The notes under the pieces are model-generated. The model was not told where the DNA came from and did no database searches. It saw nothing but the letters and a program-made list of their open reading frames with translations. Made by a program: the position numbers and the translations under genes. A stretch of 64,000 bases of DNA, taken from Taurinivorans muris (GTDB lineage Bacteria; Desulfobacterota; Desulfovibrionia; Desulfovibrionales; Desulfovibrionaceae). Shown piece by piece: positions 19,370-27,868 of the stretch. The stretch's first letter is position 1; every line of letters starts with the position of its first letter. The stretch covers positions 1,550,001 through 1,614,000 of the forward strand of contig NZ_CP065938.1 in assembly GCF_025232395.1 (NCBI RefSeq), in the 5' to 3' direction.

Positions 19370-19446
19370 CGGGACGTAGCGCAGCTTGGTAGCGCATCTG
19401 ATTTGGGATCAGAGGGTCGCTAGTTCGAATCTAGTCGTCCCGACCA
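19370..19446 (+). tRNA. tRNA-Pro (anticodon TGG)
   Basis: Complete cloverleaf with acceptor CGGGACG/CGTCCCG, anticodon loop TTTGGGA giving anticodon TGG, T-arm GCTAG-TTCGAAT-CTAGT and an encoded CCA end. A short hairpin with T run follows (about 19450-19480). It is 299 bases upstream of a second, closely similar tRNA-Pro with the same 5' flank. Confidence 0.96.
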
Positions 19447-19668
19447 TTTGAGAAGGGAAGTCATACGGCTTCCTTTTTGATTTACCTTTTTTCATGTTCG
19501 CAAATTTTCGGAACGAACACCAAGATATAATAAGCAATTGACATATGACCTTCTTTCTTCTTCCATAAGAAACACCTGCCTGCTTTTATGTCATTGTAAT
19601 TGCTGAACAAACATACTCTGCTTATTACCGGATTACGTTTGGTTATCCAAGCAGGTAAATAAAAATTT

Positions 19669-19745
19669 CGGGACGTAGCGCAGTCTGGCAGCGCGTCTGC
19701 TTCGGGAGCAGAAGGTCGCTGGTTCAAATCCAGTCGTCCCGACCA
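19669..19745 (+). tRNA. tRNA-Pro (anticodon CGG)
   Basis: Complete cloverleaf with the same acceptor stem as the first tRNA-Pro, anticodon loop TTCGGGA giving anticodon CGG, T-arm GCTGG-TTCAAAT-CCAGT and encoded CCA. The 13 bases before it are identical to those before the TGG gene, so the two came from a duplication followed by anticodon and stem change. Confidence 0.96.
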
Positions 19746-20198: not shown

Positions 20199-20960
20199 TT
20201 AAAAGACTTTTTCGTATACGCCATTGCCTAAGAATTTTACAAAGCCCCTGTCCCGCAAAAATTGCAGCTGCTGCCGTATTTTTGCTTTGATATTCTTATT
20301 CTGCGGAAATTTTTTAAATAACACAGCCTCAAATTGATAAACGTCGTTTAATCGAAATACGGCATTCAATCCGGTTATGCATTTTAAAACTTCAAAAAAC
20401 CACCCTCTTGCGGCAATATCGTCAACATCAAACAAACGGACATGCTCCGCCCGACTAAGAACCTCATGTTTCGGAACAATCTTCCCATCGGAAACAACCG
20501 CGATTCTGCCTTGCTCCGGAATTTCCGAAAATAAGATATTACAGCCTATCCAGCCCGCTCTCCTGGCGTTTTGCGTCAGCGCATTCCTTTTTTCAATAAT
20601 TTCAGGGCTGAAAAAATGCTTTGGAACAAAAGTAAAATTCACAACGGTCAAAGGAGAATCAGCATATTGCATAAAGAAAAAATCAGGATTATTGTTTGCA
20701 CATATTCTTTCAATCATTTTCCCATAAGCACCGTCAGGAATTTTATTTTTAAATGCCTTACCGCTGCTTTTTAATTCATATTCGCTCAAACACTTTGAAC
20801 ATTTATAATCAGAAACCGGGCTATTGTTTTTTTGCTTTTCAAGGTGAGCATTTCCGCAACGCGGGCAATACATATTTTTTTCAACCCAATTTTCACTCAT
20901 AACCCGCGCTTGTTGTGAATTGGACGAATAACGGCTGTCAGAAAACAAAAACAAATCCAT
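20199..20960 (-). CDS. DpnI-type methyl-directed restriction endonuclease
   Basis: A 253-residue homologue of DpnI, which cleaves GATC only when the adenine is methylated. The match runs from end to end. A catalytic zinc-ribbon-containing PD-(D/E)xK domain has Cys32, Cys35, Cys54 and Cys57 and the active-site residues Asp51, Glu62 and Lys64 in the same D-x10-ELK spacing as DpnI. NNPDFFFMQY and ARRAGWIGCNI follow. The C-terminal winged-helix methyl-reader ends KIRQQLQFLRDRGF, close to DpnI. GGAG precedes the ATG. No DpnD-like or methylase gene is adjacent. If active, the host cannot carry Dam-type methylation, so the enzyme would destroy incoming Dam-methylated DNA. Confidence 0.93.
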   Translation of the reverse strand: MDLFLFSDSRYSSNSQQARVMSENWVEKNMYCPRCGNAHLEKQKNNSPVSDYKCSKCLSEYELKSSGKAFKNKIPDGAYGKMIERICANNNPDFFFMQYADSPLTVVNFTFVPKHFFSPEIIEKRNALTQNARRAGWIGCNILFSEIPEQGRIAVVSDGKIVPKHEVLSRAEHVRLFDVDDIAARGWFFEVLKCITGLNAVFRLNDVYQFEAVLFKKFPQNKNIKAKIRQQLQFLRDRGFVKFLGNGVYEKVF

Positions 20961-21094
20961 CGGTACTCCGTAATGATAACATCATAATCAAAAACACAGG
21001 CGGCGTGATACAAATAAAAATTTCCTGTCCTGTCGTGCCCTTTCCATATTCTCTTGCCATTTCAACACACCAGAAACACAGCTTTAGAGAGCTG

Positions 21095-21123
21095 GAAAAA
21101 ACCACCTGCTGAACAGGTGGTTT
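21095..21123 (-). terminator. Terminator downstream of pyrC
   Basis: On the minus strand AAACCACCTG, loop TTCAG, CAGGTGGTTT runs into six T, about 95 bases after the pyrC stop. A perfect 10-bp stem. Confidence 0.82.
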
Positions 21124-21217: not shown

Positions 21218-22570
21218 TTACAGCACTTTTTTACCGCCGAGGTAAGCGGCACAGACACGTCCCCGCAGTTTTCGTCCCAAGAAAGGCGTATTGGCTGATT
21301 TTGAATAGAAACTTTCCTTATCCGCCGTCCATTCAATTTCCGGGTCAAAAAAGAAAAAGTCCGCAACATCGCCTTTTTCAAAACCATTGTAAGGCAATTT
21401 AAAGCGCTTCGCAGGATTTACTGTATAGGTTCTGACAATATCCTCCTGCGTCAAAACGCCCTCGCACACGAGCTGCCAAAGCAAAGTCAGGGCGGTATCC
21501 AGTCCGCTGATGCCATTGGGCACCATATCAAGGGGGTTCTCCTTTTCATGTTCGGCATGGGGGGCGTGGTCCGTTATCATGCAGTCGATAACTCCGCTCT
21601 TCACAGCTTCGCGCATGGCGAGCACATCGTCCCAAGTCCGCAGGGGAGGATTGACTTTCGCATTGGTATTGTAATTATCAACGGCATTTTCATCAAGAAT
21701 GAGATAATGGGGGCATGTTTCAGCCGTAACGTCAACGCCTCGCTCCTTCGCGCGTCTTATGAGCTCCACGCTTTTACGGCAGGAAACATGGGCGATATGC
21801 ACGGGCAAATTCAAATATTCGGCAAGCATGATATCACGCCCGACCTGCAAAGCCTCGCCTATGTCAGGCTGTCCTTTCACGCCCAGTTTCGCGGATAAAT
21901 TTCCCTCATTCATATGCGCTCCGCGGGCAAGATAGGGATCTTCGCAATGGTCGATGAAAAGCATGCCGAGATCGCTTGCGTACTCCATAACGCGCCGGAC
22001 TATTTCCGTATCGCATAGGGGCACGCCGTCATTGGAAACGGCGGTGCAGCCCGCTTCCGCCATTTCTCCGAGGGGGGCCAGCGCTTCCCCTTTCAGTCCG
22101 AGGGTGGCAGCAGCGACTGGGTGCAAAAACGGTCCGAACGGGTGCGTATTCCGGGCTTTTTCAAGCATATACCGTGTTATTCCCGCGTTATCATTTACCG
22201 GGCTCGTGTTAGCCATGCAGAACACATGCGAATAACCGCCATGCAAAGCCGCCTCCAAGCCCGTATCGATATCTTCTTTCCATTCCATTCCGGGATCGCG
22301 GAAATGCACATGCACATCGATAAGGCTGGGGAAAAGGATTTTTCCCGCCATATCGCAAACGGAACAATTTTCCGGCGGGCTCATGTTTTCCGCAAGGGCG
22401 AGGACACGCCCCCCCTTTTTGCCGTAATTCTCACCATAATTTCGATACGTGCCGCAAAAGCCGTCCTTTTCATCGAAAACAAAACCGTGTTGCGCATTTT
22501 CTTCTGCATTTTCCGTCACAAGCAAATCAACGGTCTTGCCTAAATAAAGGGCATTTTTAAATAAAATCAT
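21218..22570 (-). CDS. pyrC: Dihydroorotase
   Basis: Third step of pyrimidine synthesis: carbamoyl-aspartate to dihydroorotate, in the cytoplasm. The 450-residue metal-dependent amidohydrolase carries DVHVHFRDPG (metal histidines), the conserved HIAHVSC, AETCPHYL and MITDHAPH. Its length and motifs suit the class I type that can associate with PyrB. It starts 3 bases after the pyrB stop, so the two are translated as one unit. Confidence 0.95.
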   Translation of the reverse strand: MILFKNALYLGKTVDLLVTENAEENAQHGFVFDEKDGFCGTYRNYGENYGKKGGRVLALAENMSPPENCSVCDMAGKILFPSLIDVHVHFRDPGMEWKEDIDTGLEAALHGGYSHVFCMANTSPVNDNAGITRYMLEKARNTHPFGPFLHPVAAATLGLKGEALAPLGEMAEAGCTAVSNDGVPLCDTEIVRRVMEYASDLGMLFIDHCEDPYLARGAHMNEGNLSAKLGVKGQPDIGEALQVGRDIMLAEYLNLPVHIAHVSCRKSVELIRRAKERGVDVTAETCPHYLILDENAVDNYNTNAKVNPPLRTWDDVLAMREAVKSGVIDCMITDHAPHAEHEKENPLDMVPNGISGLDTALTLLWQLVCEGVLTQEDIVRTYTVNPAKRFKLPYNGFEKGDVADFFFFDPEIEWTADKESFYSKSANTPFLGRKLRGRVCAAYLGGKKVL

Positions 22571-23642: not shown

Positions 23643-25589
23643 TCATTCCTGCAGCGAAGCGAAAATCGGTTCAAACAAAGGAGTCAGCAAAAGCGCCCCC
23701 TCTTCGCTGAAATGGTCGTCATCCCAATAAAGAGCCGTTTTCCCGCGCACAACGTCATAAGCGGTTTTTTGAGGATTTAACAAATAAGGCGTCGGGTCCA
23801 AAAAATAAACATGCGGAAATTCCCCTGTCAATTTCTTTAAAAGCGCCGTTATTTCTTTTGTCCTTTCCTGATACGCCGCAGCAGATTCGCCTAAAATACC
23901 ATTAATCCTGTCCGTACTCAAACCGAATAATCCGGAAAGCTTGTTGGCGGAAGCGGGAACATAGCCGGCAGCCTGAGGCGCCGGACCGACCAGATAAATG
24001 GTTTCCACCCCGTTTTTCCGCAGGAGCGATATGGTTTCTTTCAAACCGAAATATAAAACTTCCAAGGGATCTTCACTTTCAAAATCAAGGGATTTCAGGC
24101 TGAACCTAGCCACGGAATTTTTTCTCGGAATATCCACTCCGTTGATATAATAATCATACCGGTATGCGATAACGGCAGTATCAAAACGTGTTGTTTCCGT
24201 TTTTTCCCTGAACTTGTCGAAACTTTTCCCTATGTTTTTCCTGTCCGCGATACTTCCGTCAAACGTATACGTACGATACGGCATGATATTGACATTCGTT
24301 GAAGAAACACGGTATTTTTCCCCCAGCTCCCGCATGAGCGGTCTTAAATGCCCGGAATGGCTGTCACCGATAAGCAATATCGAATGCGCGGAATTATCCG
24401 CCTCGTATTCGGCTGGAAGTTCACGTTTGGTATACGCGAACCCGTCATCAAAGGACAGAGTGAATTTCAAATTGTTGATAAATAACAATATCAAAGCAAA
24501 AGAGCAGACAACGCCGAACCAAAGCACGCCGTGTTTTTTGAAAATCGGCTTTTGGCGTACGGGTTTTTCGATAAAACGCCAGGAAAAAACGGAAACCAAA
24601 AATATTACGGCAAGTAAAACACAGCCGCCCGCGAAATCAATATCCCTTCTGTAAAGCCAATTCTGATAATAAACCAAAACCGGCCAATGCCATAAATACA
24701 GGGAATAAGAAATAACCCCGATAAAAACAAGGACTTTGTTCTTTGTAAGCGTGTCCGCAAAAACAGACTGCAAACGCGTTCCGCCCGCGATATACAAAAC
24801 AGCACCGAGGCAGGGGAACAATGCATAAAATCCCGGATACACCACATCGGCATAACCGATAATCGTCCCGAACATGAGCACTATCCCAAGGAAAAAACAA
24901 AACAGTTTATGTTTTTGCTCTTTCGGAGTCCAGCCGGTATAGGCGAGCAGGCTTCCGCACAAAAGCTCCCATGCCCTTGCGGGAAGCATGTAAAAGGTGA
25001 ATTTCTGATCATAAAAAACAAAAACCGCGGAAAAAATAAAACTCAGCAAAAAAAGCGCAGACAAGACATGAACGATTTTTATTCCGCTTATTTTTTTAAT
25101 ATATATATATATATTAAGGATAAACAAGAGCAAAGGGAAAACAAAATAAAACTGTTCCTCGACACCCAGGGACCATGTGTGCAAAAGGGGCAATGTTTCC
25201 GCCGCGGGGTCGAAATAATTGGTATGCAAATAAAAATAAATATTGGGAACAGTCAGCAAAACACGCTTGGCGGAACTGAAAACTTCCCGCCTTTCCAAAA
25301 TATTGACCGAAGTGACCCATTCAAAAAGCACGATGCAAAAAACCATTGCAAACAAAGCCGGAAAAATTCTGCGTACGCGGTTTTCATAAAATTCCAAAAA
25401 ACTGAACGTGCCGTCCGCAAGTTTCCGTTTGATAATGCCCGTAATCAAATAACCGGAAATCACAAAAAATATGCTGACGCCGACAAATCCGCCGCGGAAA
25501 AAGGGAATATGGGCATGATAAAAAATGACAGCCAAAACGGCTATCGCCCTCAGTACGTCTATATCCGATCTGTATTCTTTCGCCTGCAT
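23643..25589 (-). CDS. OafA-like surface O-acyltransferase with SGNH domain (copy 1)
   Basis: A 648-residue inner-membrane protein. Residues 1-350 form an acyltransferase-3 domain with about ten helices, beginning YRSDIDVLRAIAVLAVIFYH with the conserved His, plus SGYLITGI and HTWSLGVEEQFYF. Residues about 380-648 are a periplasmic SGNH hydrolase-like domain with GDSHSGHL and the closing DDDHFSEEGA. The family acetylates LPS O-antigen or other glycans. It is one of two tandem paralogues whose N-terminal parts are nearly identical while the SGNH domains differ. An (AT)8 tract lies inside the coding region. Confidence 0.9.
   Translation of the reverse strand: MQAKEYRSDIDVLRAIAVLAVIFYHAHIPFFRGGFVGVSIFFVISGYLITGIIKRKLADGTFSFLEFYENRVRRIFPALFAMVFCIVLFEWVTSVNILERREVFSSAKRVLLTVPNIYFYLHTNYFDPAAETLPLLHTWSLGVEEQFYFVFPLLLFILNIYIYIKKISGIKIVHVLSALFLLSFIFSAVFVFYDQKFTFYMLPARAWELLCGSLLAYTGWTPKEQKHKLFCFFLGIVLMFGTIIGYADVVYPGFYALFPCLGAVLYIAGGTRLQSVFADTLTKNKVLVFIGVISYSLYLWHWPVLVYYQNWLYRRDIDFAGGCVLLAVIFLVSVFSWRFIEKPVRQKPIFKKHGVLWFGVVCSFALILLFINNLKFTLSFDDGFAYTKRELPAEYEADNSAHSILLIGDSHSGHLRPLMRELGEKYRVSSTNVNIMPYRTYTFDGSIADRKNIGKSFDKFREKTETTRFDTAVIAYRYDYYINGVDIPRKNSVARFSLKSLDFESEDPLEVLYFGLKETISLLRKNGVETIYLVGPAPQAAGYVPASANKLSGLFGLSTDRINGILGESAAAYQERTKEITALLKKLTGEFPHVYFLDPTPYLLNPQKTAYDVVRGKTALYWDDDHFSEEGALLLTPLFEPIFASLQE
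25099..25114. repeat. (AT)8 dinucleotide tract inside acyltransferase copy 1
   Basis: Sixteen bases of alternating A and T within the membrane domain (encoding the IYIYI run). A gain or loss of one unit would shift the frame, so this is a possible slipped-strand switch. An identical tract is at the same place in copy 2. Confidence 0.9.
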
Positions 25590-25597
25590 GGTTTCTC

Positions 25598-27592
25598 CTA
25601 TCCGCCCTGTTTTTCATTTTCCGCTTTTTGCTTTGCAATCCGGGCAAAAACAGGTTCATATGCTTCCATATGCAGCATTGCTCCCTCATGGCTTAAATGA
25701 TCGTCATCATAATAAAAGAGCTTTTCCTCATCCATAACCGCAAACTGCCGGGTATCCGCATTCAGATAGTAAGGGCTGATGTCCACAAATTCAATCTGCG
25801 GATACTCTTCCCGCAGTATCGCGAAAGCCTCAAAAACATCCTCATTGCGCTGCCGGTATTCTGTTAATTTCTCGCCTAATTTTTCATTGATCTGCGATAC
25901 GGAGTACTCAAAAAACAGTGTTAACATCGTTGCTTTATTGGGAACCATGTCTTTGGGTTCCGGCACGGGATATTGAACATAAATATGCTTTATTCCGTAA
26001 CTGACAGCCTCATCGAGCATATCCCGCATGCTTTGCAAAAAAGCCTCTTGAGGAGTGAGCTTCTTATCAGGAATGTAATAAATCGGAAATGCTTCATCCT
26101 GCGAATAATACCGTTCTTTGCCGTCGATTTTTTGCGAATAACGAAAAACAATGAAAAGATTTTCGCAGGAATATCGTTCAAACAATTCCGTCAGCCTGTT
26201 CCATTCCATTCTGACGATTTTTCCCCTCTTATAATTATACTTGGAAATAAAGGTGTTTTTCATTAATCTTTGATTACTGGTAATGCCTGTCAGCCGGTAT
26301 TGTTCCGCCATTTTTTGAAATACGCTTTCTTCGGAAAACCTATGGCTATCCCCAATCAAAATGAAATCTACGGGGATTTTCCCTTTTACAGCCGCCTGCT
26401 TGGGAAAAGCTGTAAAACCTTGCGATCTGGAGTAATTGAACACATCATAAAGTCTTCCGTAACGCATATACGTTGCCATGGTAAAAATGCCTGCGGCGCA
26501 AACAAGCGTGACAATCCACAATATTTTTCTGTTTTTAAACAAAGGAAGCTGGCGGACCGGTCTTTCCACGAAGCGCCATGACAAATACGAAATGAAAATG
26601 GTAAGAACAATCAATCCCCCTGCAGCAGGCAAGGTGATTTCCTTATAAAAAGGAAACGTGGAATAAAACACCAAAACGGGCCAATGCCACAAATACAGGG
26701 AATAGGAAATAACCCCGATAAAAACAAGGGCTTTATTATTGGTTACCGCATGAATGATATTGGCACGGTTGGAAAAAGCGTACGAGGTTCCGCCCGCGAT
26801 GTACAAAACAGCCCCAAGGCAGGGAGGCAAAGCCCAAAAACCGGGAAAAAGAACATTTCCGGACAGGACGATAGAGGCGAACATTATGCCGAGCCCTGAT
26901 AAAATGCAAAAACTTTTTCCTTTTTGCGTTGCAGGCGTCCAAGCTGTATATGCCAGGATACTTCCGCATAAAAGCTCCCACGCCCTTGCGGGAAGCATGT
27001 AAAAGGTGAATTTCTGATTATAAAAAACAAAAACCGCGGAAAAAATAAAACTCAGCAAAAAAAGCGCAAATAAAATATGAACGATTTTTATTCCGCTTGG
27101 TTTTTTAATATATATATATATATTAAGGATAAACAAAAGCAGAGGAAAAACAAAGTAAAACTGTTCCTCGACCCCCAGGGACCATGTATGCAAAAGAGGC
27201 ATGGTTTCCGCCGCGGGGTCGAAATAATCCGTATTGGCATAAAAGAAAAAATTCGCCAAACCGAAAAGCGCACGGCGGACGGAACGCTGCAAACCTAAAA
27301 TTTCGGGCATACTCAAAAAATAATACAATAATCCCCAAAACACCATCAATACAGCCAAAGCCGGAAAAATTCTGCGCACGCGGTTTTCGTAAAATTCCAA
27401 AAAACTGAACGTGCCGTCCGCAAGTTTCCGTTTGATAATGCCCGTAATCAGATAACCGGAAATCACAAAAAATATGCTGACGCCGACAAATCCGCCGCGG
27501 AAAAAGGGAATATGGGCATGATAAAAAATGACAGCCAAAACGGCTATCGCCCTCAGTACGTCTATATCCGCCCTGTATTCTTTCGCTTGCAT
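25598..27592 (-). CDS. OafA-like surface O-acyltransferase with SGNH domain (copy 2)
   Basis: A 664-residue paralogue of the neighbouring acyltransferase. The first 90 or so residues match almost exactly (AKEYRADIDVLRAIAVL versus AKEYRSDIDVLRAIAVL), and the acyltransferase-3 domain is similar throughout. The periplasmic SGNH part (GDSHRFSEES and DDDHLSHEGA) is clearly diverged. The start at 27592 is set by GGAGAACGT and by agreement with copy 1. The gene ends 8 bases before copy 1 starts, so both are co-transcribed. Different SGNH domains suggest different glycan or acyl specificities. Confidence 0.9.
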   Translation of the reverse strand: MQAKEYRADIDVLRAIAVLAVIFYHAHIPFFRGGFVGVSIFFVISGYLITGIIKRKLADGTFSFLEFYENRVRRIFPALAVLMVFWGLLYYFLSMPEILGLQRSVRRALFGLANFFFYANTDYFDPAAETMPLLHTWSLGVEEQFYFVFPLLLFILNIYIYIKKPSGIKIVHILFALFLLSFIFSAVFVFYNQKFTFYMLPARAWELLCGSILAYTAWTPATQKGKSFCILSGLGIMFASIVLSGNVLFPGFWALPPCLGAVLYIAGGTSYAFSNRANIIHAVTNNKALVFIGVISYSLYLWHWPVLVFYSTFPFYKEITLPAAGGLIVLTIFISYLSWRFVERPVRQLPLFKNRKILWIVTLVCAAGIFTMATYMRYGRLYDVFNYSRSQGFTAFPKQAAVKGKIPVDFILIGDSHRFSEESVFQKMAEQYRLTGITSNQRLMKNTFISKYNYKRGKIVRMEWNRLTELFERYSCENLFIVFRYSQKIDGKERYYSQDEAFPIYYIPDKKLTPQEAFLQSMRDMLDEAVSYGIKHIYVQYPVPEPKDMVPNKATMLTLFFEYSVSQINEKLGEKLTEYRQRNEDVFEAFAILREEYPQIEFVDISPYYLNADTRQFAVMDEEKLFYYDDDHLSHEGAMLHMEAYEPVFARIAKQKAENEKQGG
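27108..27123. repeat. (AT)8 dinucleotide tract inside acyltransferase copy 2
   Basis: The same 16-base AT tract as in copy 1, at the equivalent codons. The equal length of both tracts fits recent duplication or gene conversion. Confidence 0.9.
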
Positions 27593-27868
27593 ACGTTCTC
27601 CAACATTATCGCCTGTGCCGATAAAGTATAGCATATACCCCTAAAAGTAAACCGCAAAATCAAGAAGTTTTCTAGACTTTTTTGTGTGTTAAAATCGCCA
27701 CACTTTTACAGCGGAAAAGGCATTGTGGCAAAAAAAACACAATGCGGCGATCTGCCAATTTTCCTCTAATATACTGATAACTATGACATAATACAAACAT
27801 ATCTTTATGGTATGAAACTTGCAAAATATAGTTACACAAATGAGTAATTCCAGACAAAAGGATTTCAT

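What the first reader, a model, noticed from the sequence alone, without database searches (positions are those of the whole stretch)
20199..20960. Solitary DpnI homologue in a deltaproteobacterium
Seen: end-to-end similarity to DpnI with all zinc cysteines and the D-x10-E-x-K active site in place, and no linked methylase or DpnD. Known: DpnI cuts only Dam-methylated GATC. Inference: the host lacks GATC adenine methylation and uses this as a barrier to DNA from Dam-positive phages and gut enterobacteria.
Basis: partly seen in the sequence, partly recalled or inferred. Interest (0 to 1): 0.66.

Follow-up and report, generated by a model that had tools for sequence, protein, structure and literature searches.

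The report
DpnI nuclease in Dam-free gut bacterium
A mouse-gut sulfidogen carries an ordinary stand-alone DpnI, an enzyme that cuts DNA methylated at GATC; its genome shows no GATC-methylating gene, and its one worrying methylase most likely marks GCATC instead, so the enzyme fits a simple barrier against methylated foreign DNA.

Summary
It is a full-length DpnI: Pfam DpnI 4e-67 plus DpnI_C 7e-28, 44% identity to the solved enzyme, and a confident model that matches the DpnI crystal structure. Every zinc, catalytic, GATC-reading and methyl-pocket residue tested is conserved, and it is under purifying selection (dN/dS about 0.15). The host is Taurinivorans muris (Desulfovibrionaceae). No methylase lies within about 80 kb, and no Dam, DpnM or phage-Dam gene was found in the 2.17 Mb genome. 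Its methylase would be incompatible with DpnI if it recognised GGATC as AlwI does, because that makes Gm6ATC. Phylogeny, domain order, site avoidance and co-occurrence instead place it with SfaNI/FokI-type enzymes (predicted GCATC/GATGC), which DpnI should tolerate. A congener without dpnI carries DpnII, the classic alternative. In 9 of 80 other dpnI loci, dpnI abuts a broken dam gene, as in Neisseria. So this is a new member of a known kind. Dam-negativity is well supported by sequence but unproven; the named targets (enterobacteria, phages) are inference. Modest interest.

The parts
20199..20960 (-). dpnI homologue, 253 aa, methyl-directed type II (IIM) restriction endonuclease
20769..20810 (-). 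PD-(D/E)XK catalytic residues D51, E62, K64 (DpnI D53, E64, K66)
   Evidence: invariant in 37 homologues
20790..20867 (-). Cys4 zinc site C32, C35, C54, C57
   Evidence: invariant
20544..20588 (-). GATC-reading and methyl-pocket loop: R125, L128, R134, W137, G139 (DpnI R126, L129, R135, W138, G140)
   Evidence: against the contacts in PMC4117772; invariant
20208..20411 (-). C-terminal winged-helix (DpnI_C) m6A-sensing domain, residues 184-251
   Evidence: PF17726 6.8e-28; 48% identity to the DpnI wH region
20966..20969 (-). GGAG, likely ribosome-binding site
   Evidence: read directly from sequence
21095..21123 (-). hairpin plus T run behind pyrC, so dpnI is probably its own transcription unit
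   Evidence: read directly from sequence; not among the scan hits
19370..19446 (+). tRNA-Pro(TGG) of the pal-tRNA-Pro site next to which dpnI lies
   Evidence: a different DpnI sits beside pal-tRNA-Pro in G270/L015
19669..19745 (+). tRNA-Pro(CGG), last gene before dpnI
21218..22570 (-). pyrC, flanking housekeeping gene; in congener G278 the tRNA-Pro/pyrC interval has no dpnI

Best explanation
The gene encodes a true, intact DpnI: a zinc-containing PD-(D/E)XK nuclease with a winged-helix m6A sensor that cuts fully methylated G(m6A)TC and ignores unmethylated GATC. It works as a one-gene type IV-like barrier: the host leaves its own GATC unmethylated, so only incoming DNA from Dam-positive cells, or phage DNA carrying its own Dam mark, is cut. 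It needs no partner methylase. It coexists with an AlwI-family R-M system whose methylase most likely marks GCATC/GATGC, which DpnI should not cut. It was gained horizontally at a tRNA-Pro site. Shown here: protein identity, conserved specificity residues, purifying selection, absence of the searched GATC-methylase classes, the methylase's clade. Inferred: activity, methylation state of host DNA, exact target of the R-M system, and biological role.
For: Family, fold and residues: pLDDT 90.7; 4esj TM 0.88. Selection: dN 0.012, dS 0.077 against UBA8003. No PF05869; the only PF02086 gene is the double MTase; PF01555 and PF02384 hits are an orphan closest to RsrI among solved structures, a type III Mod and two type I systems. 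Double MTase: 43-54% identity per domain to S. aureus, E. faecalis and Priestia AlwI-family systems, about 25% with swapped domain order to the Acinetobacter type; tree split 100/99 from the Dam/Acinetobacter clade. GCATC/GATGC is proven for AlwI-family systems in S. xylosus (PMC10030836) and Caldicellulosiruptor (PMC9799307). GCATC observed/expected is 0.57 and 0.45 in two T. muris genomes, 0.81-0.88 in congeners. Six other dpnI genomes carry MTases of that clade. Low GC (38% against 43-47%); 6 of 297 genomes of the order over the cut-off.
Against: No methylome or expression data. The systems with proven GCATC specificity could not be aligned directly, so the GCATC call is indirect. Congener G149 has an orthologous double MTase without GCATC avoidance and with strong CATCC avoidance. 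GANTC-type sites are also depleted in T. muris. Type IIG (Eco57I-like) MTases were not searched.
Confidence: 0.78

Rival explanations
1. The AlwI-family methylase marks GGATC/GATCC as AlwI and GmeI do, creating Gm6ATC; DpnI is then silent, inactive or tightly regulated in this host.
For: AlwI-type systems use two MTases fused in one chain (PMC4081073; PMC3526280), the architecture seen here. The second half matches T4 Dam with E 5e-43 and TIGR00571 dam.
Against: The tree places it outside the Dam/Acinetobacter clade; R is 39% identical to Priestia but aligns to Acinetobacter AlwI-family R only in part at 22-25%. GGATC is not specially avoided (0.79, as in unrelated genomes) whereas GCATC is. 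dpnI is under purifying selection, and DpnI plus this MTase occur together in both T. muris genomes.
Confidence: 0.12
2. The nuclease mainly targets phages or mobile elements that encode their own Dam, or prevents takeover by dam/DpnII cassettes, rather than enterobacterial DNA.
For: Congener G149 carries a DpnII endonuclease (PF04556 1.7e-103) and no dpnI; dpnI abuts broken dam genes in 9 of 80 other loci.
Against: No direct evidence on which DNA it meets; the same biochemistry serves both roles.
Confidence: 0.35
3. A decayed or repurposed DpnI-like DNA-binding protein without nuclease activity.
For: No expression or activity data (nothing here tests activity; for where such data may lie).
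Against: All catalytic, zinc and recognition residues intact; the substitutions between the two T. muris alleles spare those residues and dN/dS is about 0.15.
Confidence: 0.04

Closest known systems
R.DpnI of Streptococcus pneumoniae (PDB 4esj, 4kyw)
   Same: Same length, two domains, zinc site, active site, GATC contacts and methyl pocket; 44% identity.
   Different: No adjacent dpnD; sits at a tRNA-Pro site beside pyrC.
Drg of Neisseria (dam-replacing gene, Gm6ATC endonuclease; PMC4269198)
   Same: About 40% identity to the N. gonorrhoeae protein; solitary Gm6ATC nuclease in a host without Dam activity.
   Different: Neisseria drg sits in the leuS/dam locus, sometimes truncating dam; no dam remnant was seen at the T. 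muris locus.
Winged-helix fusion type IV m6A-dependent nucleases (PMC11037411)
   Same: Use a DpnI-like wH domain to sense m6A; usually stand-alone.
   Different: Other nuclease domains, many cutting outside GATC; this protein has the canonical DpnI nuclease domain.
AlwI-family type IIS R-M systems (AlwI GGATC; S. xylosus TMW 2.1324 and Caldicellulosiruptor GCATC)
   Same: The host has one at genome 1652044-1655977: endonuclease 655 aa plus fused double D12 MTase 651 aa.
   Different: Separate locus 83 kb away; its clade points to GCATC/GATGC, not GGATC.

Membership tests
DpnI (PF06044 + PF17726, type IIM) | Full-length nuclease domain plus winged-helix domain | tested here: met
DpnI (PF06044 + PF17726, type IIM) | PD-(D/E)XK residues D53, E64, K66 | tested here: met
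   D51, E62, K64; invariant in 37 homologues
DpnI (PF06044 + PF17726, type IIM) | Cys4 zinc site | tested here: met
   C32, C35, C54, C57
DpnI (PF06044 + PF17726, type IIM) | GATC-reading residues S17, Q18, N48, R126, R135 | tested here: met
   S15, Q16, N46, R125, R134 (contacts from PMC4117772)
DpnI (PF06044 + PF17726, type IIM) | Methyl pocket L129, R135, W138, G140 | tested here: met
   L128, R134, W137, G139
DpnI (PF06044 + PF17726, type IIM) | Cleaves Gm6ATC and not GATC | not testable with these tools
   needs purified protein
Modification-dependent barrier in a Dam-free host | No GATC adenine methylase in the genome | tested here: inconclusive
   PF02086, PF01555, PF02384 and PF05869 searched over a 99% complete genome: no Dam-type gene; the one doubtful MTase is assigned to the SfaNI/FokI clade. 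Type IIG not searched; no methylome.
AlwI proper (GGATC) for the host's second system | Fused double D12 MTase with AlwI-family endonuclease | tested here: met
AlwI proper (GGATC) for the host's second system | Sequence groups with Dam-like GGATC-type MTases | tested here: not met
   falls in the other clade with 100/99 support; the Acinetobacter type used as the AlwI stand-in is itself an assignment by organism and domain layout, not a proven GGATC enzyme

The most novel reading that the evidence does not exclude
In this host DpnI lives beside abundant self-made G(m6A)TGC/GC(m6A)TC sites. These fit the relaxed S(m6A)TS preference reported for DpnI's winged-helix domain (PMC11037411) but not the stricter GATC reading of its nuclease domain. 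The two-domain double check would then be what lets DpnI coexist with GATG/CATC-type methylation, and the sensor domain could even be docked on self DNA.
Probability: 0.2. Interest if true: 0.5.

Novelty: new member of a known kind. Interest (0 to 1): 0.3.

Why it matters
It documents a stand-alone DpnI in a cultured mouse-gut sulfidogen whose complete genome was made with nanopore reads, so the Dam-free-host idea can be checked directly. Practically, DNA from a dam-positive E. coli would be expected to fail in this organism, and dam-negative, GCATC-methylated DNA may be needed for genetics. The DpnI/DpnII split inside one genus and the repeated broken dam genes upstream of dpnI show the pneumococcal and neisserial pattern far outside those groups.

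Tried and rejected
(1) GATC depletion as a DpnI signature: T. muris has GATC observed/expected 0.41 and 79 other dpnI loci have median 0.49, but three congeners without dpnI have 0.48-0.66 and four of the five other dpnI genomes of the order have 0.75-0.91; not attributable to DpnI. (2) Fixing the R-M target by site avoidance alone: GCATC is low only in T. muris, but GAATC, GAGAC and CCATC are low too; supportive only. (5) Plasmid or phage origin: no full-length DpnI in phages, and in plasmids only two N. gonorrhoeae records of chromosome size. (6) A dam remnant at the T. muris locus: none seen; the flanks are tRNA-Pro and pyrC.

Full report
WHAT IS THERE. The ORF is real and lies on the minus strand, 20960 to 20199, 253 aa; the plus-strand reading has many stops. 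Pfam gives DpnI at 4.3e-67 and DpnI_C at 6.8e-28, PADLOC gives the methyl-directed type II restriction enzyme model at 1.6e-87, and the only PDB relative by sequence is DpnI. Identity to DpnI is 107 of 241 aligned residues, 44%. Residues that PMC4117772 reports as reading GATC or the methyl groups (S17, Q18, N48, R126, L129, R135, W138, G140) are all kept, as are D53, E64, K66 and the four zinc cysteines. Most are invariant in 37 homologues. An AlphaFold2 model (pLDDT 90.7) matches DpnI 4esj with TM 0.88 and 2.0 A rmsd. Chance is excluded.

HOST AND LOCUS. The window is 1550001-1614000 of a 2,172,708-base single contig. A 6-kb stretch is 97.5% identical to MAG UBA8003, which PMC10507020 assigns to Taurinivorans muris, a mouse-gut taurine respirer with a complete 2.2-Mbp genome from Illumina and nanopore reads. 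dpnI lies between two tRNA-Pro genes (next to pal) and pyrC. It has its own likely RBS, and a hairpin with a T run follows pyrC. Its GC is 38%, against 47% for the window and 43% for sampled genome. Only 6 of 297 genomes of the order clearly carry it, none of the four congeners tested. In congener G278 the tRNA-Pro/pyrC interval lacks it. Another genus (G270) has a 40%-identical DpnI also beside pal-tRNA-Pro. This is a sporadic gene, probably gained horizontally, at a reused site. The two T. muris alleles differ with dN 0.012 and dS 0.077, so the protein is maintained.

IS THE HOST FREE OF GATC METHYLATION? No phage-type Dam was found (PF05869). The only D12 gene is a 651-aa double MTase. The N6_N4 hits are an orphan nearest to RsrI among solved structures and a type III Mod; N6_Mtase hits are two type I systems. 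The double MTase sits beside a 655-aa RE_AlwI endonuclease (2.8e-71). This matters: AlwI and GmeI have the same layout and their fused MTases make GG(m6A)TC and G(m6A)TCC (PMC4081073; PMC3526280), which would be DpnI substrates.

RESOLVING THE CONFLICT. AlwI-family systems with proven GCATC/GATGC methylation exist in S. xylosus (PMC10030836) and Caldicellulosiruptor (PMC9799307), so the family name does not fix the target. The T. muris MTase is 43-54% identical per domain to S. aureus, E. faecalis and Priestia systems, shares most of their recognition hairpin (FNHQIRFNSKGQFNLPVGKRDFN in T. muris), and is 43% identical in its second half to the MTase next to a FokI-type endonuclease. Against Acinetobacter-type AlwI systems the halves match in swapped order at about 25%. 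A tree of Dam-like domains separates the T. muris clade from the clade of Dam, dam remnants and the Acinetobacter type with 100/99 support. GCATC is depleted in both T. muris genomes (0.57, 0.45), less so in congeners (0.81-0.88) and not in most other genera (about 1); GGATC is ordinary (0.79). In 80 named dpnI genomes, seven including T. muris carry MTases of this clade, whereas Dam-clade genes are truncated and adjacent to dpnI, with one apparent intact exception in a MAG (G336) and one divergent basal sequence (G316). The likeliest target is therefore GCATC/GATGC, compatible with DpnI. This is inference, not a measurement.

MECHANISM. By analogy with DpnI (PMC4117772), the winged-helix domain and the nuclease domain each check for G(m6A)TC before cutting. 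A host that does not methylate GATC needs no protective partner, so the gene acts alone. Which foreign DNA is the real target cannot be decided here; Dam-positive enterobacterial DNA, Dam-encoding phages, and competing DpnII/dam cassettes are all consistent.

WIDER PATTERN. Congener G149 lacks dpnI and has a DpnII endonuclease (PF04556, 1.7e-103) behind a Dam-type MTase whose frame is shifted in the MAG. Nine of 80 named dpnI loci have a C-terminally truncated or deleted Dam-type MTase directly upstream, at differing breakpoints; two have a DpnD-like ORF behind the MTase. Neisseria drg does the same (PMC4269198).

VERDICT. Observation confirmed; interpretation partly supported, with one serious gap (the AlwI-family methylase) found and probably closed. 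A new member of a known family in a well-placed host.

Noticed in passing
G000:C1:1652044-1655977 (L003:7044-10977, minus): AlwI-family type IIS R-M system (endonuclease 655 aa, fused double D12 MTase 651 aa); predicted GCATC/GATGC from phylogeny and site avoidance.
   Followed up: yes
L022, L036, L043, L044, L052, L056, L065, L067, L092: dpnI directly follows a truncated or internally deleted Dam-type MTase on the same strand in 9 of 80 named loci (several Clostridia, a Planctomycetia MAG, a Saprospiraceae MAG), with differing breakpoints; a DpnD-like ORF follows the MTase in L056 and L067 (identified by eye, not by a family search).
   Followed up: partly
L100:1369-3679 (congener G149): DpnII endonuclease with a frame-shifted Dam-type MTase and a second MTase fragment, in a congener that lacks dpnI: DpnI/DpnII alternation within one genus.
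   Followed up: partly
window and sampled G000 stretches (525 kb): GGCC is extremely depleted in T. muris (observed/expected 0.11; 0.09 in the second strain), more than in congeners (0.34-0.57); GATC, GAATC and GCATC are also low. Suggests a past or present GGCC restriction system.
   Followed up: no
phage and plasmid collections: No full-length DpnI in 50,697 phage records, and none in 72,556 plasmid records except two N. gonorrhoeae records of chromosome size: DpnI seems to spread as a chromosomal islet. Wing-like C-terminal fragments occur in L. plantarum plasmids annotated as sigma factor.
   Followed up: partly
window 19370-19745 and L015: pal-tRNA-Pro looks like a reused insertion site: different DpnI genes (40% identical) in two genera, and a different small ORF there in G278.
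   Followed up: partly
window 23643-27634: Two tandem, closely similar acyltransferase-like membrane proteins (648 and 678 aa) next to pyrB, apparently a duplication.
   Followed up: no
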